Assembly (NCBI GenBank): GCA_017404985.1
Contig: JAFRBK010000018.1
Coordinates: 1 to 32,772, forward strand
Length of the DNA: 32,772 bases
DNA from: Clostridia bacterium
GTDB taxonomy: Bacteria; Bacillota; Clostridia; Christensenellales; Aristaeellaceae
Direction: 5' to 3'
In this document: positions 8,561 to 25,388 of the stretch, piece after piece
Layout of the letters: each line of letters opens with the position of its first letter
Numbering within the stretch: position 1 is the stretch's first letter
The notes under the pieces: generated by a model
What the model saw: the letters and a program-made list of their open reading frames with translations, nothing else
Databases searched by the model: none
Told to the model about the DNA's origin: nothing
Program-made: the position numbers and the translations under genes

Positions 8561-8613
8561 TATTCGGCGGCAAAGGATCCGGGTACGGCGTATCCGGAAG
8601 GACTTTTTATGCT

Positions 8614-8657
8614 GCCGTCTGGAGGTTGCGAACGCGGACACCGGACGTCTTTTTTTC
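8614..8657 (+). terminator. Terminator-like attenuator in the ABC-F leader
   Basis: GCCGTCTGG (8614-8622) pairs with CCGGACGTC (8641-8649) with one mismatch and one G-T pair, and an unbroken run of eight T follows. It lies upstream of the ABC-F coding start and on the coding strand, so it would stop transcription before the gene. Its loop contains GTTGCGAA (8625-8632), which can pair with TTCGCAAC at 8550-8557, giving an antiterminator. Confidence 0.6.
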
Positions 8658-8674
8658 TGCCTGTCTTGTTCATG

Positions 8675-8699
8675 CTTCCTCCAGCGGCCTGGGAGGAGG
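8675..8699 (+). promoter_or_regulatory. Hairpin hiding the ABC-F ribosome binding site
   Basis: CTTCCTCCAG (8675-8684) can pair with CTGGGAGGAGG (8689-8699), which holds the Shine-Dalgarno sequence of the gene; one G is bulged and the loop is 4 nt. It would block initiation at ATG 8708 unless opened. An in-frame ATG at 8609 with its own AAGGA site reads straight through this hairpin into the gene, so ribosomes entering there would melt it. Confidence 0.45.
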
Positions 8700-8707
8700 T
8701 TTTTTTC

Positions 8708-10372
8708 ATGTCCAAAACCATTCTGGAGGCCAAAGGCCTCCGTTATTCCCTCGGAGACCGCCTGCTGCTGGACGCGGGCCGGCTGGCGGTATGCGAAGAC
8801 GAAAGAATCGGCCTGATCGGCGAAAACGGCGCAGGAAAAACCACGCTGCTGCGGATTCTGGCCGGGGAACTCATGCCGGACGAGGGCACGGTGCGCCGGC
8901 TCTGCCCCATCGCCATGATCCACCAGCAGGGCAACGCGGACGCCGGCGGGGATGGGGAAACCCGGGCCGTGTTCCGCACGCAGGAAGACAGGGAGGGCCT
9001 GTCCGGCGGGGAAATGACCCGGAACCGGATCTCCGGCGCCCTCTCCGCCCGGCCCGGGCTGCTGCTCGCCGACGAGCCGACCACGGACCTGGACCGGGAG
9101 GGGCAGGCCCTGCTGCGCCGCCGCCTGGACGGCTTCGAAGGGGCGATCCTGCTGGTTTCCCACGACCGGGCGCTGCTGCGCCGGATCTGCACCCGGATCT
9201 GGTACCTCGAGGATGGGACGGTGGCCGACTTTCCCGGCGGATACGACGAATTCATGGCCGAGCGCCTGCGGCAGCGGGAGCGCGCCGCCTTCGAATACAG
9301 CCAGTACCGCGCGGAGCAGAAGCGGCTGCAGGAATCCGCCCAGCGGATGGCGGAGCGGGCCGCCCAGGTTCGGAAGGCGCCGTCCCGGATGGGCAACAGC
9401 GAAGCCCGGCTTCATAAGCGCGAATGGACCGACTCCGTGCTGCAGCTGAGCCACGCGAAGCGGACCATCCAGAACCGGATGGAGCACCTGGAACCCAAGG
9501 AGAAGCCCCGGGCGCTGCCCGACATCCGCATGAAGCTCGGCGTGAGCCATCCGGTGGAGGCCCGGGACGCCCTGACGGTGCAGTGCGAAGCCCTGGCGGC
9601 CGGCGGAAAAACGTTGCTGCGGGACACGTCCTTCGTGCTCCCGGCCGGCAGCCGGACGGCCCTGTGCGGCCCGAACGGATGCGGAAAAACGACCCTGCTC
9701 CGGGCGCTGACCGACCACGCCGGAGACGCCGTGGAGTTCCGGGGAAGCATCCGGTTCAACCCCGCCGTGCGGATCGGGTGGTTCGACCAGCATCACGAAA
9801 GCACCCTGGACCCGGAAAAATCCATCCTGGAAAACATCCTGCGGGATTCGGAGCATCCGGAGCATTTCGCCCGCACGGTGATGGCCTGCCTCGGCATCGC
9901 CGGAGACAGCGTGTTCAAGCCGGTGAAGCTGCTTTCCGGCGGCGAGAAAGCCAAGGCGGCGCTCGGCAGGCTGCTGCTGATGGACTGCAACCTGCTGATG
10001 CTGGACGAACCCACCAACCACCTGGACCTGTTCACCATGGAAGAGCTGGAAAAGCTGCTGGCCGGCTACGGCGGAACCCTGCTCTTCGTGAGCCATGACG
10101 AGGAATTCATCCGGAAAGTATCCACCCGGCTGATCCTTTTTGAGGGAGAAGGGCTGAAAACCTGCGAGGGGGGATGGGACGAAATGAAGAAGCCGGCCCC
10201 AAAGGACCGGACCGCCGAAGACCGCCGGCTGGCCGCCAGCAGGCTGGAAATGCAGATGGCCGCCCTGGCCGCACGCATGTCCGCCCCGCGGAAGGGAGAT
10301 CGGCCGGAAGAGCTGCAGGCGGAATACATGCGCCTGGCAGAGGAAATCCGCAGCCTGAAAAGCGGGCAGTGA
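8708..10372 (+). CDS. ABC-F ATPase, ribosome-protection type
   Basis: The 554-residue protein has two ABC ATPase domains and no membrane segment, as in ABC-F proteins that act on the ribosome. Walker A motifs are GENGAGKTT (about 38-46) and GPNGCGKTT (about 321-329). Signatures are LSGGEMTRNRISGAL (about 98) and LSGGEKAKAALGRLL (about 410), and Walker B motifs are LLLADEPTTDLD and LLMLDEPTNHLD. A charged linker of about 80-90 residues with PSRMGNSEARLHKREW joins the domains, as in the Lsa/Vga/Msr-like group, and a C-terminal helical tail ends in SLKSGQ. Such proteins may displace antibiotics (lincosamides, streptogramins, pleuromutilins, macrolides) or have a translation-factor role. The choice cannot be made here, but the regulated-looking leader favours antibiotic-induced expression. 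ATG 8708 has GGAGGAGG 8 nt upstream. An in-frame ATG at 8609 would add 33 residues. Confidence 0.9.
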   Translation: MSKTILEAKGLRYSLGDRLLLDAGRLAVCEDERIGLIGENGAGKTTLLRILAGELMPDEGTVRRLCPIAMIHQQGNADAGGDGETRAVFRTQEDREGLSGGEMTRNRISGALSARPGLLLADEPTTDLDREGQALLRRRLDGFEGAILLVSHDRALLRRICTRIWYLEDGTVADFPGGYDEFMAERLRQRERAAFEYSQYRAEQKRLQESAQRMAERAAQVRKAPSRMGNSEARLHKREWTDSVLQLSHAKRTIQNRMEHLEPKEKPRALPDIRMKLGVSHPVEARDALTVQCEALAAGGKTLLRDTSFVLPAGSRTALCGPNGCGKTTLLRALTDHAGDAVEFRGSIRFNPAVRIGWFDQHHESTLDPEKSILENILRDSEHPEHFARTVMACLGIAGDSVFKPVKLLSGGEKAKAALGRLLLMDCNLLMLDEPTNHLDLFTMEELEKLLAGYGGTLLFVSHDEEFIRKVSTRLILFEGEGLKTCEGGWDEMKKPAPKDRTAEDRRLAASRLEMQMAALAARMSAPRKGDRPEELQAEYMRLAEEIRSLKSGQ

Positions 10373-10425: not shown

Positions 10426-11358
10426 TCAGCGAAGCCTTTCGACGGAGACCAGGGAACGAAGCCGCTCGTAATCCGCGGGATCGAAATCCCCCGTGAAAAT
10501 GCTCAGAGCGTTGGCGGCGGACACGGCCAGGGCCATCCGGAAGGTTTCCTCCACGGGCAGGCGGCGGGCAAAGCCCACGGCGAAACCGGCCACCATGCTG
10601 TCCCCGCAGCCGACGGTATTTTTCGGGGTGATTTTCGGCGGCCTTCCGCGGAAGAGGCCCTCATCGCAGGCCAGCAGCGCACCCTCCGCCCCCATGGAGA
10701 GCACGGCATAGGGAATGCCGCCCTCATGCAGGGACAAAAGCACATCCGCCGCTTCCTCCGCGCCGGAGAACGCGCGGCCGGTGAGCTGGGCGATTTCATC
10801 CTCATTCGGTTTCAGGAAGAACGGCTTTTCCCGGGCGGCCAGCACCAGCCGGCTGCCGCTGGTATCAATCATCGCGGGGATGCCGGCCTTCCGGCACCGG
10901 CGGATAATATCGCAGTAAGCATCCTCCGGAACACCCTTCGGGATGCTGCCGCTGACGGCTACCACATCGGCGGAGGGTAGCGCCGCGTCAAAATCGGCAA
11001 AAAATCGATCCACATCCGCCGGTGACACCGGCTCGCCGGGCTCCAGGTATTCCGTGGATTTGCCGGTGGACAAATCCCAGCAGTTGATGCAGGAGCGGGT
11101 TTCCTCCGCCACGTGGGTGAAGGCGCAGCGGACCAGGGGCTGAGCCACCAGGGATTCCAGATACCGGCCGTTGAAGCCGCCGGTGAAGCCCATGGCGGTG
11201 ACCGGCTCCCCCAGCAGGGCCGCCACCTTGCTGACATTCAGCCCCTTGCCGCCGGCCGTATTATGGACCTCCTTCACCCGCATCACCGTATCCGGATGGA
11301 TGGACTCCATCAGATACAGCTTGTCAATCGAGGCATTCAGCGTCACCGTCAGAATCAT
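10426..11358 (-). CDS. PfkB-family ketose-phosphate kinase (1-phosphofructokinase / tagatose-6-phosphate kinase type)
   Basis: The 310-residue protein belongs to the FruK/LacC branch of the PfkB family. It starts MILTVTLNASIDKLY, has the sugar-binding AGGKGLNVSKVAALLG (about 36-50) and GSIPKGVPEDAY, and the ATP/anion-hole motif NTVGCGDSMVAGFAVG with catalytic D about 251. These enzymes phosphorylate fructose-1-P or tagatose-6-P to the 1,6-bisphosphate. The gene is divergent from the class II ketose-bisphosphate aldolase gene that would use such a product. Its promoter contains a GAAACGTT motif shared with the other promoters of the locus, so it probably belongs to the LacI regulon. A GGGGG ribosome tract lies about 8 nt before ATG 11358. 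Confidence 0.88.
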   Translation of the reverse strand: MILTVTLNASIDKLYLMESIHPDTVMRVKEVHNTAGGKGLNVSKVAALLGEPVTAMGFTGGFNGRYLESLVAQPLVRCAFTHVAEETRSCINCWDLSTGKSTEYLEPGEPVSPADVDRFFADFDAALPSADVVAVSGSIPKGVPEDAYCDIIRRCRKAGIPAMIDTSGSRLVLAAREKPFFLKPNEDEIAQLTGRAFSGAEEAADVLLSLHEGGIPYAVLSMGAEGALLACDEGLFRGRPPKITPKNTVGCGDSMVAGFAVGFARRLPVEETFRMALAVSAANALSIFTGDFDPADYERLRSLVSVERLR

Positions 11359-11417
11359 ACAGCATTCCCCCGCGCAGCCATCTCCGCCCGGACGGAGGCG
11401 GCTTTTCTTTTGGAATG

Positions 11418-11452
11418 ATCATACACTATTTTCACGTTTTTAGCAACGTTTC
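11418..11452 (-). promoter_or_regulatory. Promoter of the pfkB gene with LacI-type operator
   Basis: On the minus strand, TTGCTA (11446-11441) and TATGAT (11423-11418) are 17 bp apart. GAAACGTTG (11452-11444) covers the -35 box, and its AACGTT core at 11445-11450 matches the other putative operators. Binding there would block RNA polymerase. Confidence 0.65.
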
Positions 11453-11563
11453 TGTTTTTCGGCGGCACGGGCGCCGGTTTTGTGGGAACGGCGGCCCGGC
11501 GGAAGGGCGGCGGCCCGCAGGCAGAAAATCATCAAAATTGCATGAAATCCGCTGCTTTTCCCA

Positions 11564-11616
11564 TTGACAAAGCGACGAACAAGGGGTATCATCAAAAAAG
11601 CGAAACGATTCGTTTT
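11564..11616 (+). promoter_or_regulatory. Promoter and LacI-type operator of the aldolase operon
   Basis: TTGACA (11564-11569) and TATCAT (11587-11592) are 17 bp apart. Immediately downstream, from about 11603, AAACGATTCGTTT is a 13-bp inverted repeat (AAACGA-T-TCGTTT) placed over the start of transcription. It shares the GAAACG half-site with the pfkB, fucI and lacI promoters. A repressor here would control the whole five-gene operon. A catabolite (CcpA) site is the main alternative reading. Confidence 0.65.
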
Positions 11617-11643
11617 TTCTGTGAAAGAAAGAGAGGGAAACAT

Positions 11644-12483
11644 ATGCCGTTTGTATCGACGAAGGACATGCTGGCCGGAGCCCAGCAGGGCGCCTACGCC
11701 ATCGGCGCCTTCAACGCCGAAAACATGGAAATGGTTCAGGCGATTATCGCCGCCGCGGAGGCGGAGCGGGCGCCTGTGATGATTCAGACCACGCCGGGGA
11801 CGCTGAAATACGCCGGGCCCGCCTGCTTCGCGGGCCTCGTGAGCCGCCTGGCGCGGGACGCGGCGGTGCCCGTGGCCCTGCACCTGGACCACGGCAGCAG
11901 CTATGAGCTGGCGGAGCAGTGCGCCCGGGAAGGCTATACCTCCCTGATGATCGACGGGTCCAAGCTGCCATACGAAGAAAACGTGGCTCTCACCCGCCGG
12001 GTGGTCGGCATGGCGTGCGGCCTGCCGGTGGAAGCGGAGCTGGGCACCGTCGGCGGAAAAGAGGACGGCATGGAAGCCAAGCCCCAGTATACCGACCCGG
12101 AGGAAGCGGCGGATTTCGTCGGCCGGACGGGCATCAGCAGCTTCGCCGTCGCCATCGGCACGGCCCACGGCGTATACAAAGGAGAGCCGAAGCTGGACCT
12201 GGAGCGGCTTTCCGCCGTGCGGGAAAAGGTGAGCATTCCCCTGGTGCTGCACGGCACCTCCGGCGTGCCGGAGGACCAGGTGCGGGAGTGCATCCGCCGC
12301 GGAATCTGCAAGGTGAACTACGCCACGGACCTGCGGATCGCCTTCACCGCGGGGGTGAAGAAAGGCATCGAGGAACAGCCCTCCGCCTTTGACCCGAAGA
12401 AATACCTGAGCTGCGGCCGCCAGGCGGTGCAGGAGCGGGTGCAGGAGCTGATCCGCCTGCTCGGCAGCAGCGGAAAAGCATGA
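11644..12483 (+). CDS. Class II ketose-1,6-bisphosphate aldolase (GatY/KbaY/FbaA-like)
   Basis: This 279-residue zinc aldolase cleaves ketose-1,6-bisphosphates (fructose or tagatose type) into dihydroxyacetone phosphate and glyceraldehyde-3-phosphate. Family residues are visible: VALHLDHGSSYE with catalytic D82 and zinc ligand H83, E132 in VEAELGTVGGKEDG, H175 in AIGTAHGVYKG, H203 in LVLHGTSGV, and NYATDLRIAF near the end. Length and motifs suit the short GatY/KbaY group. ATG 11644 is chosen because GAGAGGGA lies just upstream; the in-frame region further upstream contains the promoter. It is the first gene of an operon with FGGY kinase, GatD-like dehydrogenase, aldo/keto reductase and FucU. 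It is not related to fuculose-phosphate aldolase FucA. Confidence 0.92.
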   Translation: MPFVSTKDMLAGAQQGAYAIGAFNAENMEMVQAIIAAAEAERAPVMIQTTPGTLKYAGPACFAGLVSRLARDAAVPVALHLDHGSSYELAEQCAREGYTSLMIDGSKLPYEENVALTRRVVGMACGLPVEAELGTVGGKEDGMEAKPQYTDPEEAADFVGRTGISSFAVAIGTAHGVYKGEPKLDLERLSAVREKVSIPLVLHGTSGVPEDQVRECIRRGICKVNYATDLRIAFTAGVKKGIEEQPSAFDPKKYLSCGRQAVQERVQELIRLLGSSGKA

Positions 12484-12508
12484 CCAAAAAGGCAGAGCGG
12501 AGGCCCTC

Positions 12509-13990
12509 ATGAAAACGTATCTGATGGGAGTGGACCTGGGCACCTCTTCCTGCAAGACGGCGCTGTTTGAGCCCGACGGCCGGGTCGCCGCCCTGGGCGG
12601 GGCGGACTATTCCGTCCGGTATCCGCAGCGCGGCTGGGCGGAACAGGATCCGGAGGAATGGTGGGACGGCATCTGCCGGGCGATCCGGGGCATGATGGAA
12701 AGCAGCGGGATCTCCCCGGCCGAAATCGCCGGCATCGGCGTCGACGGCCAGAGCTGGTCCGCCATAGCCCTGGACGCCGCGGGGCAGGTGCTCTGCCCGA
12801 CGCCGATCTGGACGGATACCCGCAGCGCGGACATCTGCCGGGAAACCGCGGAACGGATCCCGGAGCGGGAGCTGTTTGACATCTGCGGCAATCCCGTGCA
12901 GCCGGGCTACACCTGGCCGAAAATCCTCTGGTACCGGAAGCACCGGCCGGAGGTGTTCGAACAGACGGAGAAAATTCTCCAGTCCAACAGCTATATCGTC
13001 TACCGCATGACCGGCGAAATCACCCAGGACCTTTCCCAGGGATACGGTCTGGCCTGCTTCGATATGCGCCGGGGATGCTGGAGCGGGGAAACCTGCGAGC
13101 GGCTCGGCATTCCGCGCAGGATGCTGCCGGAGCTGATGCCCTCCCACCAGGTGGCGGGCCGGCTGACGGCGGAGGCGGCGGAGCGCTGCGGGCTGCAGGC
13201 GGGCATCCCCGTGGTGGCCGGCGGGCTGGACGCCGCCTGCGGAACCCTGGGGGCCGGGGTCGTTTCCTCCGGGCAGACCCAGGAGCAAGGCGGCCAGGCC
13301 GGCGGCATGAGTATCTGCATCGGCGAATACGCGGCGGATCCCCGGCTGATTCTGGGCTTCCACGTGGTTCCGGGGCGCTGGCTCCTGCAGGGCGGCACCA
13401 CCGGCGGCGGAGGCGCCCTGAAATGGCTGCGGGAAACCATGTGCCCCGAACTGGACTTCGTGGCCATGAGCGCCCTGGCGGAAAGCGCGCCGGCCGGCAG
13501 CGGCGGGGTCGTTTTCCTGCCCTATATGGCGGGGGAGCGCAGCCCGATCTGGGATCCGAAAGCCTGCGGCGTTTTCTTCGGGCTGAATTTCGGAACCGGC
13601 AGGGCCCAGATGATCCGGGCCTGCATGGAAGGCGTGGCCTATGCCCTGCGGCATAACCTGGAGACGGCGGAGCAGGCCGGCGCCCGGGCGGACGTGCTGC
13701 GGGCCATGGGCGGCAGCGCCAACAGCCGGATCTGGACCCAGATCAAGGCGGACGTGACGGGCCGCGACATCGAGGTACCCTCCAGCGACACGGCCACGAC
13801 CCTCGGCGCGGCCATCCTGGCCGGGGTCGGCACCGGCGTCTACGACAGCTTCGAGGCGGCCGCGGAGCAGACCGTCCGGGTTTCGCGCAGCGTGAAGCCG
13901 AATCCGGAAAACCAGGAAACCTACGACCGGGGATATGCGGCCTACCGGGAACTGTATGAAAGCCTGAAGGGCCTGATGCACCGGCAGTGA
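12509..13990 (+). CDS. FGGY-family carbohydrate kinase (xylulokinase-like)
   Basis: The 493-residue kinase has the N-terminal actin-fold phosphate loop GVDLGTSSCKTALF (D9), the sugar-binding part GIGVDGQSWSAIALD and PIWTDTRS, the catalytic base in VVAGGLDAACGTLGAG (D241), and the C-terminal FLPYMAGERSPIWDPKACGVFFGL, GGSANSRIWTQIKADVTG and TTLGAAILAG, all typical of XylB-like enzymes. It would phosphorylate a ketose or polyol at its end hydroxyl. Xylulose, fuculose, ribulose or a hexitol are all possible, and sequence alone does not decide. GGAGG lies 5 nt before ATG 12509, 25 nt after the aldolase gene. Because no PTS is present, this kinase may be the step that supplies the phosphate for the GatD-like enzyme next door. 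Confidence 0.92.
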   Translation: MKTYLMGVDLGTSSCKTALFEPDGRVAALGGADYSVRYPQRGWAEQDPEEWWDGICRAIRGMMESSGISPAEIAGIGVDGQSWSAIALDAAGQVLCPTPIWTDTRSADICRETAERIPERELFDICGNPVQPGYTWPKILWYRKHRPEVFEQTEKILQSNSYIVYRMTGEITQDLSQGYGLACFDMRRGCWSGETCERLGIPRRMLPELMPSHQVAGRLTAEAAERCGLQAGIPVVAGGLDAACGTLGAGVVSSGQTQEQGGQAGGMSICIGEYAADPRLILGFHVVPGRWLLQGGTTGGGGALKWLRETMCPELDFVAMSALAESAPAGSGGVVFLPYMAGERSPIWDPKACGVFFGLNFGTGRAQMIRACMEGVAYALRHNLETAEQAGARADVLRAMGGSANSRIWTQIKADVTGRDIEVPSSDTATTLGAAILAGVGTGVYDSFEAAAEQTVRVSRSVKPNPENQETYDRGYAAYRELYESLKGLMHRQ

Positions 13991-14057
13991 CAGCGCCGGG
14001 CAGGCCCCAAAGCAAGGAAACATCCCCAAAGGAACGAAAGGAAGGGACCCTGATCCA

Positions 14058-15107
14058 ATGAAAGCAGCAGTACTCTACGGCAACGAGGATATCCGTTACG
14101 ACGACTGGGAAACCCCCGTGTGCCGCCCCGGCACGGTGAAAGTCCGGGTGCGGGCCACCGGCATCTGCGGCAGCGACGTTCCCCGGGTGCTGAACCACGG
14201 CGCCCATTTCTATCCGGTGGTGCTCGGGCACGAATTCAGCGGGGATATTGTGGAAATCGGCGAGGGCGTCGAAGGGCTGAATGTCGGCGACACGGTCAGC
14301 GGGGCGCCGCTGGTGCCCTGCATGAAATGCGAGGACTGCCAGCTGGGGAATTTCTCCCTCTGCAAGCATTACAGCTTCATCGGCAGCCGGGAGCAGGGAA
14401 GCTTCGCCGAATACGTCGTCATTCCCGCGGCGAACGCCATCCCCTATGACCCCGTGATCCCCTATGAGCAGGCGGCCATGTTCGAGCCCTCCACCGTGGC
14501 GGTGCACGGGCTTCTGCAGGCCCGCTACCGGGGCGGGGAAACCGTGGCCATCCTGGGCTGCGGCACCATCGGCATCTTCACGCTGCAATGGGCGAAAATT
14601 CTCGGCGCGAAGCAGATCGTGGCCTTCGATATCGACGACGGCCGGCTGGAACTGGCCCGGCGGCTGGGCGCCCACGCAACGGTCAACACCCTGAAGGACG
14701 GCTTTATGGGCGAGGCAAAGGCCCTCACCGGCGGCCGCGGATTCGAAAACGTGCTGGAGACCGCCGGAAACCCGGTGACCATGCGCATGGCCTTCGAGCT
14801 GGCAGCGAACAAGGCGAAGGTCTGCTTCATCGGCACGCCGCACACGGACCTGACTTTCACCCCGGCCCAGTGGGAAAACATGAACCGCAAGGAGTTTTAC
14901 CTCACGGGCAGCTGGATGAGCTATTCCGCCCCCTTCCCGGGAAAAGAATGGAAGCTGACGGCCCACTGCTTCGCGGACGGGCGGCTGAAATTCGATCCCT
15001 CCATGATTTTCCGGAAATTCCCGCTGAGCCGGGCGGCGGAAGCCTTCGCCCTGTATAAGAACCCGCGGGACGTGCACGGAAAAATCATGCTGATCAACGA
15101 AGAATAA
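14058..15107 (+). CDS. GatD-like zinc-dependent polyol-phosphate dehydrogenase
   Basis: This 349-residue medium-chain dehydrogenase closely follows galactitol-1-phosphate 5-dehydrogenase. It has GICGSDVPRVLNHGAHFYPVVLGHEFSG (catalytic zinc C37, H58, E59), PLVPCMKCEDCQLGNFSLCKHYSFIGSREQGSFAEY (structural zinc C88, C91, C94, C102), E143 in FEPSTVAVHG, the NAD motif ILGCGTIG (about 166-172) and GSWMSYSAPFPGKEW. GatD makes tagatose-6-phosphate from galactitol-1-phosphate. A PfkB kinase and a class II bisphosphate aldolase, the next two steps of that pathway, are in the same locus, so an oxidation step feeding them is likely. The true substrate could be another polyol phosphate or a free polyol. 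AAGGAAGGG lies about 11 nt before the start. It is third in the operon. Confidence 0.88.
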   Translation: MKAAVLYGNEDIRYDDWETPVCRPGTVKVRVRATGICGSDVPRVLNHGAHFYPVVLGHEFSGDIVEIGEGVEGLNVGDTVSGAPLVPCMKCEDCQLGNFSLCKHYSFIGSREQGSFAEYVVIPAANAIPYDPVIPYEQAAMFEPSTVAVHGLLQARYRGGETVAILGCGTIGIFTLQWAKILGAKQIVAFDIDDGRLELARRLGAHATVNTLKDGFMGEAKALTGGRGFENVLETAGNPVTMRMAFELAANKAKVCFIGTPHTDLTFTPAQWENMNRKEFYLTGSWMSYSAPFPGKEWKLTAHCFADGRLKFDPSMIFRKFPLSRAAEAFALYKNPRDVHGKIMLINEE

Positions 15108-15146
15108 TCAAGGATGGCCAAGGCCAAAATAAAGGAGGAGAAGAAC

Positions 15147-16157
15147 ATGGCATTCATTGACCCGAAACTGGTTCCGAAGCGGAAACTGTCGAACGGCCAG
15201 GAGATCCCCTGCATCGGCATGGGCACCTTCGGCAGCGACCGTTTCACCCCCGAGCAGGTGTCCACCGCGGTGGCCGGCGCCATCCGCAGCGGATACCGCC
15301 TGTTTGACTGCGCGTCCGTCTACGGCAACGAAGACCTGATCGGCAAGGTTTTCGAGGACGCGATGAAGGAAGGCGTGGTGTCGCGGGAAGAGCTGTTCAT
15401 CACATCCAAGGTGTGGAACGACATGCACGGCCAGGGCGACGTCCTGCTTTCCTGCGCCAAGACCCTGAAGGATCTGCGGCTCGATTATCTGGACTTCTAC
15501 TTTGTCCACTGGCCCTTCCCGAACTACCATGCGCCGGGATGCGACGGGGACAGCCGGAACCCGGACAGCAAGCCCTTCAGCGTGGAGGAATTCATGAGCA
15601 CCTGGCGCCAGATGGAGCGCCTGGTGGATATGGGCCTGGTCCGCAATATCGGCATGAGCAGCATGACGATTCCGAAGCTGGAGGCGGTGCTGCCGCTGTG
15701 CCGCATTCAGCCCATGGTGATCGAAATGGAGCTGCATCCCTGCTTCCAGCAGCCGAAGCTGTATGATTACGTGGTGGCCCGCGGCATCCAGCCCATCGGC
15801 TTCTGCCCCATCGGCAGCCCCACCCGCCCCGACCGGGACATGACGCCGGACGACATCGCGGATATCCAGGTGCCGGAGCTGGTGGACATCGCCCGGGCCC
15901 ACGGCGTGCATCCCGCGGTTATCTGCCTGAAATGGGCCGTGCAGCGCGGCCAGATTCCGATCCCCTTCTCCATTCATGAGAACGAGTATGTGTCCAACCT
16001 GGAATCCACCGTCAAGGATCCGCTGACCAACGCGGAGATGGCGATCCTCAAAGGCGTGGACAAAAACTGCCGCCTGATCAAGGGCCAGGTCTTCCTGTGG
16101 CCCGGCGCCTCGTCCTGGCACGACCTGTGGGACGAGGACGGCGTGATTGTGAAATAA
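15147..16157 (+). CDS. Aldo/keto reductase
   Basis: The 336-residue TIM-barrel reductase has the complete AKR tetrad: D54 and Y59 in RLFDCASVYGNEDL, K88 in FITSKVWND, and H121 in FYFVHWPFPN. NIGMSSM and IPIPFSIHENEYVSNL are cofactor-binding segments. It would reduce an aldehyde or aldose with NAD(P)H. ATG 15147 is preferred over the in-frame ATG at 15114 because AGGAGG stands just before it. It follows the GatD-like gene by 39 nt. In this context it could convert an aldose to a polyol for the GatD-like enzyme, or reduce lactaldehyde if the substrate is a 6-deoxy sugar. The long C-terminus (GQVFLWPGASSWHDLWDEDG) is not seen in short AKRs. Confidence 0.9.
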   Translation: MAFIDPKLVPKRKLSNGQEIPCIGMGTFGSDRFTPEQVSTAVAGAIRSGYRLFDCASVYGNEDLIGKVFEDAMKEGVVSREELFITSKVWNDMHGQGDVLLSCAKTLKDLRLDYLDFYFVHWPFPNYHAPGCDGDSRNPDSKPFSVEEFMSTWRQMERLVDMGLVRNIGMSSMTIPKLEAVLPLCRIQPMVIEMELHPCFQQPKLYDYVVARGIQPIGFCPIGSPTRPDRDMTPDDIADIQVPELVDIARAHGVHPAVICLKWAVQRGQIPIPFSIHENEYVSNLESTVKDPLTNAEMAILKGVDKNCRLIKGQVFLWPGASSWHDLWDEDGVIVK

Positions 16158-16173
16158 GGGGGGCGGCGGAAAC

Positions 16174-16608
16174 ATGCTGAAAGGAATCCCTTCGATCCTG
16201 ACCCCGGAGCTGCTGAAGATCCTGATGGAAATGGGCCACGGGGACGAGCTGCTGATCTGCGACGGCAACTATCCGAAGTTTGGCTGCCCGGAGCGCTGCG
16301 TGCGGCTGGACGGCCACGGCATCCCGGAAATCCTCGACGCCATCCTGCGGTTCTTCCCCCTGGATCCCTATGTGGAAAACCCGACGATCCTGATGGCCGT
16401 GCTGCCGGGCGACCCTTACAAGCCGGAAATCTGGGATACCTACCGGGAAATCGGCAAAAAATATGAGAAGGACGGCCTCCGGGAAATCGCCGTGCAGAAG
16501 CCGGAATTCTATCCCCGGGGCGCGAAGTGCTACGCCTGCATCGCCACCGGCGAAACGGCACTGTATGCCAACGTGATCCTGAAAAAGGGCGTCGTGAAGC
16601 CCGACTGA
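16174..16608 (+). CDS. RbsD/FucU-family sugar mutarotase
   Basis: The 144-residue protein has family features: LTPELLKILMEMGHGDELLICDGNYP, with the GHGDE motif (H22) and D30, and a C-terminal ATGETALYANVILKKGVVKPD, matching FucU (fucose mutarotase) better than RbsD. It would speed the interconversion of alpha and beta anomers of a pyranose before isomerisation. Together with the fucI-like isomerase on the other strand it points to an L-fucose-like aldose substrate. It is the last gene of the operon, 16 nt after the reductase, and a perfect-stem terminator follows. Confidence 0.9.
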   Translation: MLKGIPSILTPELLKILMEMGHGDELLICDGNYPKFGCPERCVRLDGHGIPEILDAILRFFPLDPYVENPTILMAVLPGDPYKPEIWDTYREIGKKYEKDGLREIAVQKPEFYPRGAKCYACIATGETALYANVILKKGVVKPD

Positions 16609-16646
16609 CAAGGCCTGTTCCCGTTCCACGGTTTCTCCTTTTAGCG

Positions 16647-16690
16647 GAAAGCCGCGCCTCCTGCCTGACCGGAAGCGCGGCTTTCTGTTG
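16647..16690 (+). terminator. Terminator of the aldolase-to-mutarotase operon
   Basis: GAAAGCCGCGC (16647-16657) and GCGCGGCTTTC (16675-16685) form a perfect 11-bp stem around a 17-nt loop. Only a short T-rich tail follows (TTTCTGTTG), so termination may need the strong stem more than the tail. Confidence 0.75.
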
Positions 16691-16694
16691 CCCT

Positions 16695-16730
16695 GAAAAA
16701 TGCAGACCCCCGGAATCCGGAGGCCTGCAG
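16695..16730 (-). terminator. Terminator of the fucI gene
   Basis: On the minus strand, about 20 nt after the fucI stop, TGCAG-CTCCGGA and TCCGGGG-CTGCA pair in a long stem with small internal bulges, and a run of five T follows (16700-16696). It faces the plus-strand terminator of the mutarotase operon, so the convergent units are separated by two back-to-back terminators. Confidence 0.75.
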
Positions 16731-16750
16731 GATGCAGCGTTCAGGAATAA

Positions 16751-18553
16751 TTATTTTTTATAGAAGGGGCCATAGTTCGCGCAGGCGCGGTAGTCGGCGC
16801 CTTCCTTGTCCATGCCGAAGGCGTTCCAGGCGGCGGGGCGGAAAATATCCCCGGCAGGAACATTATGCATGGCGACGGGAATGCGCAGCATGGAGCAGAA
16901 GGTGATCAGGTCCGCGCCGATATGGCCGTAGCTGATGGCGCCGTGGTTGGCTCCCCAGTTGTTCATCACGTCATAGGCGGATTTGAAGGGGCTGCCCTCC
17001 TTCCCGTCGCAGCGCGGGGTGAACCACGTGCAGGGCCAGGTGTAATCCGTCCGCTTCCACAGGATGTCCGTCACGTCCTCCGGCAGGCACACCGTCCAGC
17101 CTTCGGCGATCTGGAGCATCGGGCCGAGCCCGTCGACCAGATTCAGCCGGATCATGGTGGCGGGCATCGCGTAGTCCGTCACGAAGCGGCTTGAGAATCC
17201 GCCGCCGCGGAAGTATCCCAGGTCGGCATAGTTCCAGGTCGTATGTTCCATGATGGCCTTCCGGTCCGCCTCGTTCACCTCGTACCAGGGCTTCATGAGC
17301 CGGTTCCCTTCGGCATCCCGGGCCTGGCCGTTGGCGTCCAGGCAGCAGGCACCGGAGTTGATCAGGTGGATGAACCCGCCGTTTTCCTTCGCCGCGCCTT
17401 CCAGGTCATACCCGGTGCACCGCTTGACGGCTTCGGGGCTCCAGAAGGTGCGGACATCCGCAAACATCTGGGCGCGGTTGGTCAGCAGCTTCATGAAGAG
17501 CATGCCCAGGCCGTTGAGCACGTCGTTCTCGGTGGCGAGGATGTAGGGCTCCCGCGTGCCGTTGTGGTCGAAGGAGGTGTTCAGCATGGCCTCCGGGAAG
17601 TCGCAGTTCGGATAGAAATCCGTCCACTGGCGCTGGCCCTGGAAGCCGCCGGCGATGGCGTTGTGGCCGACCGCCTCCTCCTCGTTTCCGGCGGGCAGGT
17701 TGGGGTTGCCGTTCATCAGGTCCTTGATGATCAGGTACATCTTCAGGGTGAACTCCCAGTCCCGGTCCTTCTGCTCCCGGGTTTTCTGCAGTTCGGCGGG
17801 ATTCTTGTCGAAGCCCTCCTTCACATTTTCTTCGGCCCAGGCCTTCAGCTTTTCATATTCTGCGGCGTCGTAGATGCCCAGCGTCATGCGGCGGATGATT
17901 TCCACCTCGTCCACGGACTCCACGCGCATGCCCAGGTATTCCTCAATGAATTTGCTGTCGATGATGGATCCGCCGATGCCCATGGTGATGGCGCCGATCT
18001 GCAGGTAGCTCTTGCCGCGCATCGTGGCAGCGGCGACGGCAGCCCGGCCGAAGCGGAGCAGCTTTTCCCGCACGTCTTCCGGAATGGAGGTGTCGTCCGC
18101 CTCCTGCACCTCGTGGCCGTAGATGCCGAAAGCCGGCAGGCCCTTCTGGGCATGGGTGGCCAGGACGCTGGCCAGGTAGACCGCGCCGGGGCGCTCGGTG
18201 CCGTTAAAGCCCCACACGGCCTTGATGGTGTTCCGGTCCATGTCCATGGTTTCGGAACCGTAGCACCAGCAGGGGGTCACCGTCAGCGTGACGGCCACGC
18301 CCTCCCGACGGAATTTTTCCTCGCAGGCGGCGGCCTCCGCCACCCGGCCGATGGTGGTGTCCGCGATCACGACCTTCACCGGCTCGCCGTTGGAATACCG
18401 CAGGTTTTCCTCAAAAAGCTTCGCGGCGGAACGGGCCATGTTCATGGTTTGGTCTTCCAGGCTCTCCCGCACCTTCAGCACGCCGCGGCGGCCGTCGATG
18501 GTCGGGCGGATGCCGATCACGGGATAGCTGCCAAGATATCTGTTTTTCGCCAT
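16751..18553 (-). CDS. fucI: L-fucose (D-arabinose) isomerase
   Basis: The 600-residue protein matches FucI along its length. Metal and catalytic residues of E. coli FucI (E337, D361, H528) fall at E342 in [15 protein letters not shown]366 in [15 protein letters not shown] and H537 in [18 protein letters not shown]. Other hallmarks are EYFRGGG-type [21 protein letters not shown] and the C-terminal [14 protein letters not shown]. The enzyme is a Mn2+-dependent hexamer turning L-fucose into L-fuculose or D-arabinose into D-ribulose. The start at 18553 has AAGGAGG about 12 nt upstream. It is transcribed alone, next to and in the same direction as its likely regulator gene. The operator-like sequence in its leader is shared with the aldolase operon. 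Confidence 0.96.
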
Positions 18554-18601
18554 GTGGTTCTGAAGCCTCCTTATGATTTTGTCGCAATGTATTGTCGCAG
18601 C

Positions 18602-18634
18602 GGAAATAACGTTTCCTTTTTCTACCCTATGATA
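18602..18634 (-). promoter_or_regulatory. fucI promoter -10 region with LacI-type operator
   Basis: On the minus strand TATCAT (18634-18629) is a good -10, and no good -35 is visible upstream. Directly downstream, GGAAACGTTATTTCC (18616-18602) is an inverted repeat with the AACGTT core at 18608-18613. Its place just after the start of transcription suits a repressor roadblock. The promoter lies within the end of, or just after, lacI. Confidence 0.55.
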
Positions 18635-18642
18635 CCCCGGAA

Positions 18643-19659
18643 TCAGCCGTCAGCGCAAGCCCGGACGGAGCGCCCCTCCGTGAGCGCCGTGCTGAGCGTC
18701 ACGATCCGGTGGGAAACCGCGTCGCGGTTCATCAGCAAGTCCAGCATCAGGTTGGCCGCCTCCCGGCCGATGCTCAGCTGGGGCTGGCGGATCAGCGTCA
18801 GGTCCGGGAAAATCTCGCCGAACAGCTCCAGCTTGTCGAAGCCGATCACGGACAGGTCCTCCGGCACGCGGATGCCGCTGTGCTGCAGCGCCAGCATCGT
18901 GCCCAGGGTCATTTCAAAATTGGTCACGAACAGGGCGGTGGGGCGGTCCTTCAGCTTCAGCAGGTCGGAAACCGCCTGGTATCCGCCGTCCATGGTATAG
19001 TTCCCGTAGCGGATGTATTCCTCGGTCGGCGTGATGCCGGCGTCCTTCAGGGCGTTCAGGTATCCGGTCAGCCGCTGGTTGGTCGTGTACAGATTGGGGC
19101 TGCCCAGCACCAGGCCGATCTTGCGGTGGCCGAGCTCCGTCAGCTTCCGCACCGCCTGCCCGGCCGCGTGGGCATTGTCGATCACGACGGCGCTGACCTT
19201 GCCGCGCAGGCTTTCCACCAGCCGGTCGATCAGCAGCACGGGGATATTGGCGTTCAGGGCAGCCTTCAGGTGGGCGCCGGTGGCGTCGGTGGCCATGTTG
19301 ATCAGCCCGTCCACCCGCCGGTGAAGCAGAAACTCCACGGCTTCCTTTTCCCGCTTCGGGTCGCTCCGGCAGTCGCAGACGATCACGGCATAATCCTGCT
19401 TCCGCAGAATATCCTCCATCGAGGAGATGATGGAGGTAATGAAGGCGTTGCTCAGCTCCGGAATGACGACGCCAATCACACGGGTCTGCTGGGTTTTGAG
19501 GCTGCGAGCCACTTCATTGGGCACGTAGTGCAGCTTTTTCACCGCGTTTTCAATCGCCAGCCGGTTTTTTTCACGGACAACTCCGCCGTTGAAGTATTTG
19601 GAGATCGTAGCCAGGCCAAGCCCCGTTTCACGGGAAAGGTCTTTCATCGTCGCTGCCAT
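18643..19659 (-). CDS. LacI-family transcriptional repressor
   Basis: The 338-residue protein begins with a LacI HTH ([52 protein letters not shown], residues 5-55). The hinge and periplasmic-binding-like effector domain follow ([25 protein letters not shown] … [26 protein letters not shown] … [15 protein letters not shown]). A sugar or sugar phosphate made by this pathway is the probable inducer. GGAGGTGA lies 7 nt before ATG 19659. Its gene sits between fucI and a promoter that carries two AACGTT palindromes, so it probably represses itself, fucI, pfkB and the aldolase operon. The inducer cannot be told from sequence. Confidence 0.93.
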
Positions 19660-19684
19660 ATGCTCACCTCCGCTTGATGGTTCT

Positions 19685-19730
19685 ATCGTATCAGAGATTC
19701 ACCCAAAAAACAAACGTTTTTTGTTTTGGG
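19685..19730 (-). promoter_or_regulatory. lacI promoter with overlapping operator
   Basis: On the minus strand TTGTTT (19713-19708) and TACGAT (19690-19685) are 17 bp apart. An imperfect dyad at 19702-19730 (CCAAAAAACAAACG / CGTTTTTTGTTTTGG) is centred on AAACGTTT (19712-19719) and covers the -35. This suggests autorepression. Confidence 0.55.
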
Positions 19731-19779
19731 ATCCCCCCGAAACACGAAAAAGCCAGCGAAAGCAGGGCCGGATGGGATT

Positions 19780-19789
19780 GAAACGTTTC
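19780..19789. promoter_or_regulatory. Second operator-like palindrome upstream of lacI
   Basis: GAAACGTTTC is a perfect 10-bp palindrome whose centre is about 69 bp from the centre of the operator at 19715. A repressor tetramer could bridge the two. It also fits a loose CcpA cre consensus, so catabolite control is the alternative. Confidence 0.5.
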
Positions 19790-23143: not shown

Positions 23144-23545
23144 TTATTCCGCCCAGTTTGCCGTCTTCAGGTTTTTTACCCTGCAAAACTCACGTGTATT
23201 GTTTGTCACAACAGTATAACCTAATGATCTGGCATGTCCTGCTATGAGCATGTCTAAAGGGCCGATTGGAATTCCTCTTTTTTCAAGATCTGCCCGAACC
23301 TTTCCATACTCATCCGCTGCACGTGTATCAAAATCCAGGATTTCTATATTCGCAAGCAAAAGAGATAAAGCCAGTCTGTTTTTGTCAACCGCTTCGCTTT
23401 TCTCTACGCCGCAGACAAGTTCTGCATATGTTACTGAGGAAATACAAACATCTTTGGGCTCCATTTTCCGCAACTTCTGAAATACCTTTTCGGGTTTGTG
23501 TTTAATTGCATAAATGCAGATATTGGTATCCAGCATATACCTCAT
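23144..23545 (-). CDS. vapC: PIN-domain toxin VapC
   Basis: The 133-residue PIN-domain ribonuclease has its acidic active-site residues in place: D6 in [16 protein letters not shown]42 in [15 protein letters not shown]98 in [14 protein letters not shown], and N116 in [15 protein letters not shown]. VapC toxins cut tRNA or rRNA when freed from VapB. Its start overlaps the end of the antitoxin gene by 4 bp (ATGA, 23542-23545), the usual arrangement. It lies in the outer segment of the tRNA-Pro island, where it would stabilise the element. The gene looks intact. Confidence 0.93.
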
Positions 23546-23778
23546 AACGCTTCCCGCTCCTGAACTCCCTGATTGTCTCTTCCGTCTTTCATAAAGTCAT
23601 CTGAGAACATATCGATTGCCTTCATAAAGGATTCCCATTGGCTTGTTTTAGGCATCAAAAGAACAATGTCGCCAATCCGGTTTATTATCACTTCATCAGA
23701 AGAAAACCGGTATTCCTTTGGTAATCTTACAGCCTGGCTTCTTCCATTCTCAAAAACCTTCGCTACTGTCATATTCAT
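23542..23778 (-). CDS. vapB: AbrB/MazE-type antitoxin VapB
   Basis: This 78-residue antitoxin starts at ATG 23778, set by AAAGGA 5 nt upstream. [40 protein letters not shown] is a classic SpoVT/AbrB-type swapped-hairpin DNA-binding domain (about 3-42). The C-terminal [22 protein letters not shown] would wrap the toxin. It would repress its own operon through the 22-bp palindrome in the promoter. The overlap with vapC indicates coupled translation. Confidence 0.92.
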
Positions 23779-23796
23779 CACCGTCCTTTCAATTGT

Positions 23797-23825
23797 AGTA
23801 TATATCATGATATATACTCCGTCAA
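23797..23825 (-). promoter_or_regulatory. vapBC promoter with perfect 22-bp operator palindrome
   Basis: On the minus strand TTGACG (23825-23820) and TATACT (23802-23797) are 17 bp apart. The whole spacer and -10 are covered by a perfect 22-bp palindrome at 23797-23818, with half-site AGTATATATCA. A VapBC complex bound there would shut the promoter. Confidence 0.85.
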
Positions 23826-23860
23826 CCTCCATTTTTGTTTTTTGAATTGTCGGGATCAAC

Positions 23861-25331: not shown

Positions 25332-25388
25332 AGAAACTGATCTCCCCTTCGAATTGAAATAATACCCGAAAACCTTCACTTAAACGCA

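What the first reader, a model, noticed from the sequence alone, without database searches (positions are those of the whole stretch)
10426..19789. Hybrid fucose/tagatose-type sugar pathway under one LacI regulator
The locus joins an L-fucose-style front end (FucU mutarotase, FucI isomerase) to a tagatose-6-phosphate-style back end (GatD-like dehydrogenase, PfkB kinase, class II bisphosphate aldolase), plus an FGGY kinase and an aldo/keto reductase. The aldolase that normally follows FucI (FucA) is absent, and there is no PTS or other transporter. One model is aldose to polyol or ketose, phosphorylation by the FGGY kinase, oxidation by the GatD-like enzyme, second phosphorylation by PfkB, and cleavage to two triose phosphates. 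I know of no named pathway with exactly this set.
Basis: partly seen in the sequence, partly recalled or inferred. Interest (0 to 1): 0.72.

Follow-up and report, generated by a model that had tools for sequence, protein, structure and literature searches.

The report
Likely L-galactose breakdown gene cluster
A conserved set of sugar genes, found in many gut and rumen bacteria, looks like an undescribed way to break down a rare plant sugar (most likely L-galactose) by first reducing it to an alcohol and then turning that into an ordinary sugar phosphate; no enzyme of it has been tested.

Summary
The genes are real and in the stated places. Eight genes (PfkB kinase, class II aldolase, FGGY kinase, GatD-like dehydrogenase, aldo/keto reductase, FucU, FucI, LacI) lie at 10426-19659. 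The only three AACGTTTC sites of the window lie upstream of PfkB/aldolase, FucI and LacI, which supports one LacI regulon. No FucA was found in the held genome (85% complete); its one Aldolase_II match sits in a rhamnose operon. No galactitol PTS was found. In 80 loci found with the reductase, the conserved unit is aldolase-FGGY-GatD-(PfkB)-reductase-(FucU); FucI is seen in only 9. In some relatives a GatZ/KbaZ-family gene (tagatose-6-phosphate 4-epimerase family) stands where PfkB and aldolase stand in others, and was never seen together with PfkB. That points to D-tagatose-6-phosphate as the meeting point. Best model: an aldose, most likely L-galactose, is reduced to galactitol, phosphorylated by FGGY, oxidised by GatD to D-tagatose-6-phosphate, then PfkB and aldolase. 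FucI is a co-regulated side arm, probably for L-fucose. My paper searches found no description of this route. Substrate identity is inferred, not shown.

The parts
10426..11358 (-). PfkB-family kinase, proposed D-tagatose-6-phosphate 1-kinase
   Evidence: NCBIfam hexose kinase subfamily TIGR03168 over cut-off (304.8 vs 216.4); 1-phosphofructokinase 278.4 vs 292 and lacC 217.1 vs 409.55, both below. Best PDB match is a tagatose-6-phosphate kinase, 2awd.
11644..12483 (+). class II ketose-bisphosphate aldolase, proposed D-tagatose-1,6-bisphosphate aldolase
   Evidence: TIGR00167 over cut-off (301.2 vs 215.6); GatY PRK12737 357.5 vs 383 and fructose-bisphosphate aldolase TIGR01859 340.2 vs 343.05, both just below, so tagatose versus fructose is not resolved.
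12509..13990 (+). FGGY carbohydrate kinase, proposed galactitol 1-kinase
   Evidence: TIGR01312 XylB 412.5 vs cut-off 380.25; L-fuculokinase TIGR02628 133.7 vs 470.9. Substrate not determined.
14058..15107 (+). GatD-like zinc dehydrogenase, proposed galactitol-1-phosphate 5-dehydrogenase
   Evidence: Best PDB match E. coli GatD 4a2c, 258 bits, next 147; zinc-ligand motifs aligned (roles of the residues recalled). PRK10309 307.6, below its cut-off 550.
15114..16157 (+). aldo/keto reductase, proposed aldose (L-galactose) reductase
   Evidence: Pfam Aldo_ket_red 156.6 bits; nearest solved structures are aldehyde/aldose reductases; D-Y-K-H tetrad motifs aligned (tetrad recalled).
16174..16608 (+). 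RbsD/FucU-family sugar mutarotase
   Evidence: Pfam RbsD_FucU 127.9 bits; fucose mutarotase PRK15420 107.3, below its cut-off 141.
16751..18553 (-). L-fucose isomerase FucI, co-regulated side arm
   Evidence: Over both NCBIfam FucI cut-offs; all three Fucose_iso Pfam domains.
18643..19659 (-). LacI-family repressor
   Evidence: Pfam LacI (27.6 vs 27) and Peripla_BP_3 (127.4 vs 26.5) over cut-off.
11443..11452 (.). operator-like site GCAACGTTTC; core 87 bp upstream of PfkB, over a -35-like hexamer
11602..11616 (.). imperfect palindrome just downstream of the promoter-like TTGACA-17-TATCAT (11564-11592) of the aldolase operon
18603..18615 (.). operator-like site GAAATAACGTTTC upstream of FucI
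19780..19789 (.). perfect palindrome GAAACGTTTC, 121 bp upstream of LacI; the only copy in the held genome

Best explanation
The + strand operon with PfkB encodes a reductive, phosphorylating route for a galacto-configured aldose, most likely L-galactose freed from plant cell-wall side chains. FucU interconverts the anomers. The aldo/keto reductase reduces L-galactose to galactitol. The FGGY kinase phosphorylates galactitol to galactitol-1-phosphate, the job a PTS does in E. coli. The GatD-like enzyme oxidises C5 to give D-tagatose-6-phosphate, and PfkB and the class II aldolase give two triose phosphates. Galactitol has no handedness, so reduction plus re-oxidation at the other end turns an L-sugar into a D-sugar with no net redox cost if the cofactors match. 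FucI shares the LacI regulator but is a parallel arm, probably L-fucose to L-fuculose, finished by rhamnose-type kinase and aldolase. Shown: genes, order, conservation, operator-like sites, the GatZ/PfkB alternation. Inferred: every enzyme activity, the substrate and the order of the FGGY and GatD steps.
For: (1) Conserved unit: of 80 loci chosen by the reductase (so the reductase is there by construction), GatD is in 68, FGGY in 63, aldolase in 54, FucU in 42, PfkB in 39. In a search made with GatD over 150 genomes, 19 had a strong match; FGGY is next to it in 15 and within 7 kb in 1 more of the 19, the reductase next to it in 13 of 19. (2) Node: in L072, L076 and L081 a GatZ/KbaZ-family gene directly follows FucU-FGGY-GatD-AKR, where L073 and L080 have PfkB-aldolase; no PfkB was seen in the 5 GatZ loci of 80, nor in L213 (for the 4 among 62 full loci chance is 0.027, a comparison chosen after seeing the pattern). 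GatZ interconverts tagatose-6-phosphate and fructose-6-phosphate (PMC11907403, passages). (3) GatD is by far the closest solved relative of the dehydrogenase. (4) No galactitol PTS in 37 of 37 genus genomes, so a kinase is needed. (5) L-sugar context: FucU; GH29 fucosidase-family genes in 8 of 80 loci (0.6-0.7 expected); GH31 in 7 of 80 and GH95 in 2 of 80. L-galactose side chains occur in cereal xylans and are released by GH95 (PMC7176698, PMC4491172, passages). (6) Signs of one regulon.
Against: No enzyme was assayed. NCBIfam calls the FGGY protein a xylulokinase. GatD, GatY and LacC curated cut-offs are not reached. The own genome has no GH95, and its two GH29 matches lie on other contigs. 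The GH95 Thr/His position was uninformative: all 8 GH95 proteins in which the motif could be read carry Thr, 2 near a cluster and 6 not. 19 of 62 full loci have the aldolase but no PfkB in reach, and L076 has both GatZ and aldolase. L103, one of the GatZ loci, lacks FGGY and lies on a short contig. GatD with FGGY but no reductase is seen in G052 (19 kb) and G090. FucI is enriched near the cluster (9 of 80 loci, about 0.14 expected), which the side-arm reading explains only loosely. D-galactose would give the same galactitol.
Confidence: 0.48

Rival explanations
1. Same enzymes, other entry sugar: galactitol itself or D-galactose is the substrate; D-galactose is reduced to galactitol and the rest runs as above.
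For: Galactitol is the same compound from D- or L-galactose; the back end does not distinguish them (chemistry). The reductase is of the broad aldose-reductase type.
Against: FucU rather than a galactose mutarotase, and FucI and GH29/GH95 genes near the cluster, point to L-galacto sugars; for galactitol alone the reductase would be useless.
Confidence: 0.17
2. The GatD-like enzyme oxidises the free polyol first and the FGGY kinase phosphorylates D-tagatose at C6; the product is still D-tagatose-6-phosphate.
For: FGGY kinases usually act on ketoses (recalled) and this one scores as a xylulokinase; a PF00107 dehydrogenase that acts on a free polyol is known from the Agrobacterium altritol pathway (recalled). 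In five other loci the reductase stands beside a different zinc dehydrogenase without this kinase.
Against: Closest solved relative is GatD, which acts on the phosphate (recalled).
Confidence: 0.15
3. A pentose route: the reductase makes a pentitol from D-arabinose or xylose, the dehydrogenase makes D-xylulose, FGGY is a true xylulokinase; FucI and FucU handle D-arabinose.
For: XylB model over its cut-off; a D-arabinose isomerase is among the PDB relatives of FucI; an arabinofuranosidase-type or xylan esterase gene lies near some reductase-only loci.
Against: Leaves PfkB, the aldolase and the GatZ replacement unexplained; dehydrogenase much closer to GatD (258 bits) than to xylitol dehydrogenase 7y9p (127 bits).
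Confidence: 0.1
4. A plain L-fucose pathway: FucI, FGGY as fuculokinase, the class II aldolase in place of FucA, the reductase acting on lactaldehyde.
For: FucI and FucU; same operator-like sites; FucI and the cluster co-occur in the genus, 6 both, 2 cluster only, 3 FucI only, 26 neither, Fisher P 8e-4; L102 has FucU, a kinase, FucI, aldolase, FGGY, GatD, PfkB and reductase in one run.
Against: GatD and PfkB would have no job; fuculokinase model far below cut-off; FucI not seen in 71 of 80 loci (many are cut by contig ends); L066 carries its own Aldolase_II-FucI-kinase set beside the full core.
Confidence: 0.06
5. D-altrose or D-allulose route: FucI links D-allulose and D-altrose, the reductase makes D-altritol, and GatD-like oxidation gives D-tagatose-6-phosphate.
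For: Stereochemistry fits (recalled), and a FucI that isomerises D-altrose is named in the title of a reference seen in PMC3557285 and PMC3637100.
Against: FucI is seen in 9 of 80 loci only; D-altrose is very rare in nature (recalled).
Confidence: 0.04

Closest known systems
E. coli galactitol (gat) pathway: GatABC PTS, GatD, PfkB/LacC-type kinase, GatY/GatZ (set recalled)
   Same: GatD-like dehydrogenase, proposed tagatose-6-phosphate node, PfkB kinase, GatY-like aldolase
   Different: No PTS in 37 of 37 genus genomes; an FGGY kinase and an aldose reductase stand in front; FucU mutarotase; LacI regulator
Agrobacterium D-altritol/galactitol pathways with the PF08013 tagatose-6-phosphate 4-epimerase (recalled; GatZ function seen in passages of PMC11907403)
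   Same: Polyol to D-tagatose-6-phosphate; the PF08013 variant occurs in relatives L072, L076, L081, L085, L103, L213
   Different: Here aldose reduction is proposed to come first and the window uses PfkB plus aldolase
L-fucose pathway FucU-FucI-FucK-FucA, e.g. Clostridium phytofermentans, for which one aldolase for fuculose and rhamnulose phosphate is proposed (PMC3557285, passages)
   Same: FucI and FucU; the held genome has rhamnose genes that could finish the route
   Different: No FucA found in the held genome; no fuculokinase by curated cut-off
Oxidative L-galactose pathway of Luteolibacter LG18 (PMC12632266, passages)
   Same: Proposed substrate; a gene written 'rbsD' is listed with the lgu genes
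   Different: Oxidises L-galactose to L-galactonate and on to tagaturonate; here reduction to galactitol is proposed
Fungal oxidoreductive galactose/pentose pathways (recalled)
   Same: Aldose reductase plus polyol dehydrogenase
   Different: Here the polyol is proposed to be phosphorylated before oxidation, and a bisphosphate aldolase ends the route

Membership tests
L-fucose (Fuc) pathway | L-fucose isomerase FucI | tested here: met
   1013.6 vs 775 and 951.6 vs 850 bits
L-fucose (Fuc) pathway | L-fuculokinase FucK | tested here: not met
   TIGR02628 133.7 vs cut-off 470.9 for the FGGY protein of the window
L-fucose (Fuc) pathway | L-fuculose-1-phosphate aldolase FucA | tested here: not met
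   Own genome: 1 Aldolase_II match, in a rhamnose operon; no match to the FucA-like protein of L066; genome 85% complete. Relative G033 has a 40% match near its cluster.
L-fucose (Fuc) pathway | fucose mutarotase FucU | tested here: inconclusive
   Pfam family met; PRK15420 107.3 vs cut-off 141
Galactitol / tagatose-6-phosphate (Gat) pathway | galactitol PTS (EIIC-GAT) | tested here: not met
   0 of 37 genus genomes incl. own; one match below the cut-off in 61 genomes
Galactitol / tagatose-6-phosphate (Gat) pathway | galactitol-1-phosphate 5-dehydrogenase GatD | tested here: inconclusive
   Best family hit and best PDB hit, but 307.6 vs curated cut-off 550
Galactitol / tagatose-6-phosphate (Gat) pathway | tagatose-6-phosphate kinase | tested here: inconclusive
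   Hexose kinase subfamily met; lacC 217.1 vs 409.55; best PDB hit is a tagatose-6-phosphate kinase
Galactitol / tagatose-6-phosphate (Gat) pathway | tagatose-bisphosphate aldolase | tested here: inconclusive
   GatY subfamily 357.5 vs 383; fructose-bisphosphate aldolase 340.2 vs 343.05; ketose-bisphosphate aldolase met
Xylulokinase (XylB) pentose route | XylB-type kinase | tested here: met
   412.5 vs 380.25; substrate not tested
Oxidative L-galactose pathway (Luteolibacter type) | L-galactose dehydrogenase and L-galactonate dehydrogenase | not tested
   the own genome was not searched for them
Any of these | measured enzyme substrate | not testable with these tools
   needs assays

The most novel reading that the evidence does not exclude
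A widespread, undescribed reductive route for L-galactose in gut and rumen Clostridia: reduction to the symmetrical polyol galactitol, phosphorylation by an ATP-dependent FGGY galactitol kinase, and re-oxidation from the other end to D-tagatose-6-phosphate, so that an L-sugar is turned into a D-sugar by way of an achiral intermediate. Two interchangeable endings exist: PfkB plus aldolase, or a GatZ-type epimerase.
Probability: 0.42. Interest if true: 0.66.

Novelty: new variant of a known kind. Interest (0 to 1): 0.52.

Why it matters
If the model holds, it gives a fate in anaerobic gut and rumen bacteria for L-galactose, a sugar present in cereal xylan side chains, by a route that differs from the oxidative one described in Luteolibacter. 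It would add an FGGY galactitol kinase (the phrase 'galactitol kinase' is in none of the 5.39 million held papers). It would also correct a likely misannotation: the kinase is named xylulokinase by its curated model, and the cluster looks like a broken fucose operon. Five genes and a few sugars are enough to test it.

Tried and rejected
A plain fucose pathway with a replaced aldolase: rejected as main reading, because GatD and PfkB would be idle and FucI is seen in 9 of 80 loci.

A deoxy-hexitol route from L-fucose through L-fucitol and 1-deoxy-tagatose-6-phosphate: rejected on paper, as there is no C1 hydroxyl for PfkB and no C1 phosphate for the aldolase.

GH95 Thr/His test of L-galactose versus L-fucose (idea from PMC4491172, passages): the motif could be read in 2 GH95 proteins near clusters and in 6 of the 22 GH95 matches; all 8 carry Thr, so it says nothing.

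GH95 as a partner gene in the genus: not correlated. The own genome has none; GH95 is in G008, G010, G020 and G024 but not in G007, G011, G022, G029, G033 or G035, which hold the cluster.

Second Fucose_iso_C protein of the own genome (C33): only the C-terminal domain matches; no link to this cluster was seen.

ORF calling by longest frame gave antisense frames and was replaced by a codon-usage score.

Operators in relatives: of 14 same-genus loci (several are the same genome twice) only 3 have the core upstream of the aldolase, against 7 of 11 for LacI. None was found in L140, L142 or L143, which hold FucI of three relatives, and some copies lie inside genes (L138 8541, L139 10350). Shared control of the aldolase operon is therefore supported in the window but only partly in relatives.

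Neighbour survey: only 25 of 101 matched families are shown, and the 13 large ORFs listed for reductase-only loci were not scanned as a set; two were seen in other calls. tRNA and Rfam scans found three tRNAs. No structure prediction was run.

Number mended on checking: I first used 68 GH29 matches as background; the table has 79 rows, of which 70 score 46 bits or more.

Full report
WHAT IS THERE. The window is a whole 32,772-base contig (C50) of a 2.98 Mb draft genome, 85% complete. The stated genes are all present as open reading frames. On the + strand: class II bisphosphate aldolase, FGGY kinase, GatD-like zinc dehydrogenase, aldo/keto reductase and FucU, with gaps of 25, 67, 6 and 16 bp. 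On the - strand: PfkB, divergent from the aldolase; FucI, convergent with FucU; and LacI, 89 bp upstream of FucI. No sugar transporter was recognised among the 20 window proteins scanned; some smaller ORFs and the ABC-type ORF at 8609-10372 were not scanned.

ONE REGULON. AACGTTTC occurs 4 times (3 places) in the window: 11445, 18608 and the palindrome at 19780-19789. Chance gives 0.75, and 1 of 100 shuffles reaches 4. All three places fall in the PfkB/aldolase, FucI and LacI promoter regions, 534 bp of 32,772; the P of about 4e-6 given there is after the fact, since the motif was noticed while reading these regions. The perfect palindrome GAAACGTTTC occurs at no other place in the held genome; the backwards control occurs at 4. 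A promoter-like TTGACA-17-TATCAT (11 of 12) lies at 11564-11592 before a further imperfect palindrome at 11602, and a weaker one on the - strand overlaps the 11445 site; two such promoters were found against 1.7 by chance, so the counts alone prove nothing. In relatives the core GAAACGTT lies about 100 bp upstream of the ABC-FucI run (L138, L139), and AACGTTTC upstream of a rhamnulokinase paralogue and a GH31 gene (L139); the full palindrome lies upstream of LacI (L038, L039). Other copies lie inside genes, and L140, L142 and L143, which also hold FucI, have none. Upstream of LacI the core is in 7 of 11 loci, upstream of the aldolase in 3 of 14, background 0.05 per 350 bp (some loci are the same genome twice).

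WHAT IS CONSERVED. Most are titled as Clostridia or groups within them; Flexilinea (Chloroflexota, recalled) and two spirochaete records are among them, the spirochaete loci with a different dehydrogenase. By construction all 80 hold the reductase. GatD is in 68, FGGY 63, aldolase 54, LacI 43, FucU 42, PfkB 39 and FucI 9 of 80. Many loci are cut by contig ends, so these are lower bounds. A less biased search with GatD over 150 genomes gave 19 strong matches. FGGY is next to GatD in 15 and within 7 kb in one more of the 19; the reductase is next to it in 13 of 19. Of the 6 without the reductase, 2 end at the edge of the contig (G039, G095), 2 also lack FGGY (G104, G110), and 2 have FGGY (G090, G052). 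All 9 same-genus matches have the FGGY-GatD-AKR-FucU order.

THE MEETING POINT. In L073 and L080 (Flexilinea) the run is ABC-FucU-FGGY-GatD-AKR-PfkB-aldolase. In L072, L076 and L081 the run is the same up to AKR, but a PF08013 (GatZ/KbaZ) protein follows. PF08013 genes are in 5 of 80 loci (L072, L076, L081, L085, L103) plus L213, and PfkB was seen in none of these. L103 is a short contig without FGGY, and L076 also has an aldolase. Among the 62 loci with GatD and FGGY the 4 with GatZ and 36 with PfkB do not overlap, chance 0.027, again after the fact. In 19 of the 62 there is an aldolase but neither PfkB nor GatZ in reach. E. coli GatZ and KbaZ interconvert tagatose-6-phosphate and fructose-6-phosphate (PMC11907403, passages seen). 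Both endings therefore fit one intermediate, D-tagatose-6-phosphate, which is also what GatD makes from galactitol-1-phosphate (recalled). GatD is the closest solved relative of the dehydrogenase, 258 bits against 147 for the next.

HOW IT PROBABLY WORKS. Galactitol-1-phosphate normally comes from a PTS (recalled), but no EIIC-GAT passes the cut-off in any of 61 genomes, 37 of them of this genus. The FGGY protein can fill that place and the aldose reductase can make galactitol. Because galactitol is achiral, L-galactose reduced at C1 and re-oxidised at C5 gives a D-tagatose skeleton. L-galactose rather than D-galactose is suggested by FucU and by fucosidase-family genes near the operon: GH29 in 8 of 80 loci against 0.6-0.7 expected from the density in 61 genomes, GH31 in 7 and GH95 in 2 of 80. 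L-galactose is found in cereal xylan side chains, along with alpha-xylose, and GH95 and GH31 enzymes remove them (PMC7176698 and PMC4491172, passages seen). The density comparison uses other taxa and treats related loci as independent, so it is rough. An RbsA-type ABC ATPase is in 21 of 80 loci.

THE FUCI ARM. FucI and the cluster co-occur in 37 same-genus genomes: 6 both, 2 cluster only, 3 FucI only, 26 neither, Fisher P 8e-4. Near the reductase FucI is in 9 of 80 loci, about 0.14 expected. In two relatives (L138, L139) an ABC transporter runs into FucI; a rhamnulokinase paralogue distinct from the genus-wide one stands near FucI in G035, G022, G033 and G005. The two single-contig genomes G022 and G035 have FucI but no FucA-like match above 30% identity. 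G033 has a FucA-like gene (40%) about 4.5 kb from the cluster; so do five same-genus genomes without FucI at 40-42% (G015, G017, G018, G031, G034), away from any cluster. In the own genome the only Aldolase_II match follows RhaA and a rhamnulokinase-like gene on C48. For Clostridium phytofermentans one aldolase for fuculose and rhamnulose phosphates is proposed (PMC3557285, passages seen). So FucI most likely opens an L-fucose arm that borrows rhamnose enzymes. L066 has its own Aldolase_II-FucI-kinase set beside the full core, and L102 has FucU, a rhamnulokinase-like kinase, FucI and the full core in one run. This co-localisation is the strongest reason to keep the rival that FucI belongs to one joint route.

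WHAT IS WEAK. No activity is shown. The kinase is named xylulokinase by a curated model. Curated GatD, GatY and LacC cut-offs are not met. GH95 residues did not discriminate. The own genome has no GH95, no close copy of the relatives' FucI-linked binding protein (best 28% over part), and is 15% incomplete. It was not searched for the oxidative L-galactose enzymes.

IN PRINT. Searches for L-galactose with galactitol, tagatose-6-phosphate and catabolism, L-galactose with L-galactosidase and gut, fucose with tagatose-6-phosphate kinase and Blautia, L-galactose with galactitol, aldose reductase and tagatose (one paper on engineered yeast, listing only), 'galactitol kinase', altritol with galactitol, L-galactose utilisation phrases (30 of 372 listed, mostly plant vitamin C), galactitol-1-phosphate with L-galactose and L-galactose with L-fucose isomerase showed no description of this route in the listings. 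The library lacks most subscription papers. The oxidative L-galactose pathway of Luteolibacter (PMC12632266, passages seen) is different.

VERDICT. It is a conserved combination of known enzyme families for which I found no name, best read as a reductive galactitol/tagatose-6-phosphate route for L-galactose with a co-regulated FucI arm.

Noticed in passing
L072:3-1847 (-), and five other loci of cluster c19: In L072 one ORF joins a LacI DNA-binding domain to an SBP_bac_1 solute-binding domain, an unusual regulator architecture upstream of the ABC-FucU-FGGY-GatD-AKR run; the other members were not scanned.
   Followed up: no
L041, L042:9057-11633, L113, L121, L123: A second kind of module pairs the same reductase family (60-71% identical) with a different zinc dehydrogenase, in L042 with FucU, and without FGGY: perhaps aldose to polyol to free ketose.
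   Followed up: partly
window 23144-23859 (-): Two small overlapping ORFs look like a VapB/VapC-type toxin-antitoxin pair (by eye from the translation; not scanned).
   Followed up: no
own genome C33:2789-4270 (L044): A 494-aa protein with only the C-terminal L-fucose isomerase domain; substrate unknown.
   Followed up: no
G001, G022 and G035 GH29 genes: GH29 matches in three genomes have one in-frame TGA; decay, error or recoding not examined.
   Followed up: no
window 24051-25379 (-): A beta-lactamase-fold serine hydrolase-like ORF (by eye from the translation; not scanned).
   Followed up: no
L113, L114, L115, L118: Reductase loci without GatD lie beside an arabinofuranosidase-type gene (L114, L115, L118) or an acetyl xylan esterase gene (L113), which fits a link to xylan side chains.
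   Followed up: no
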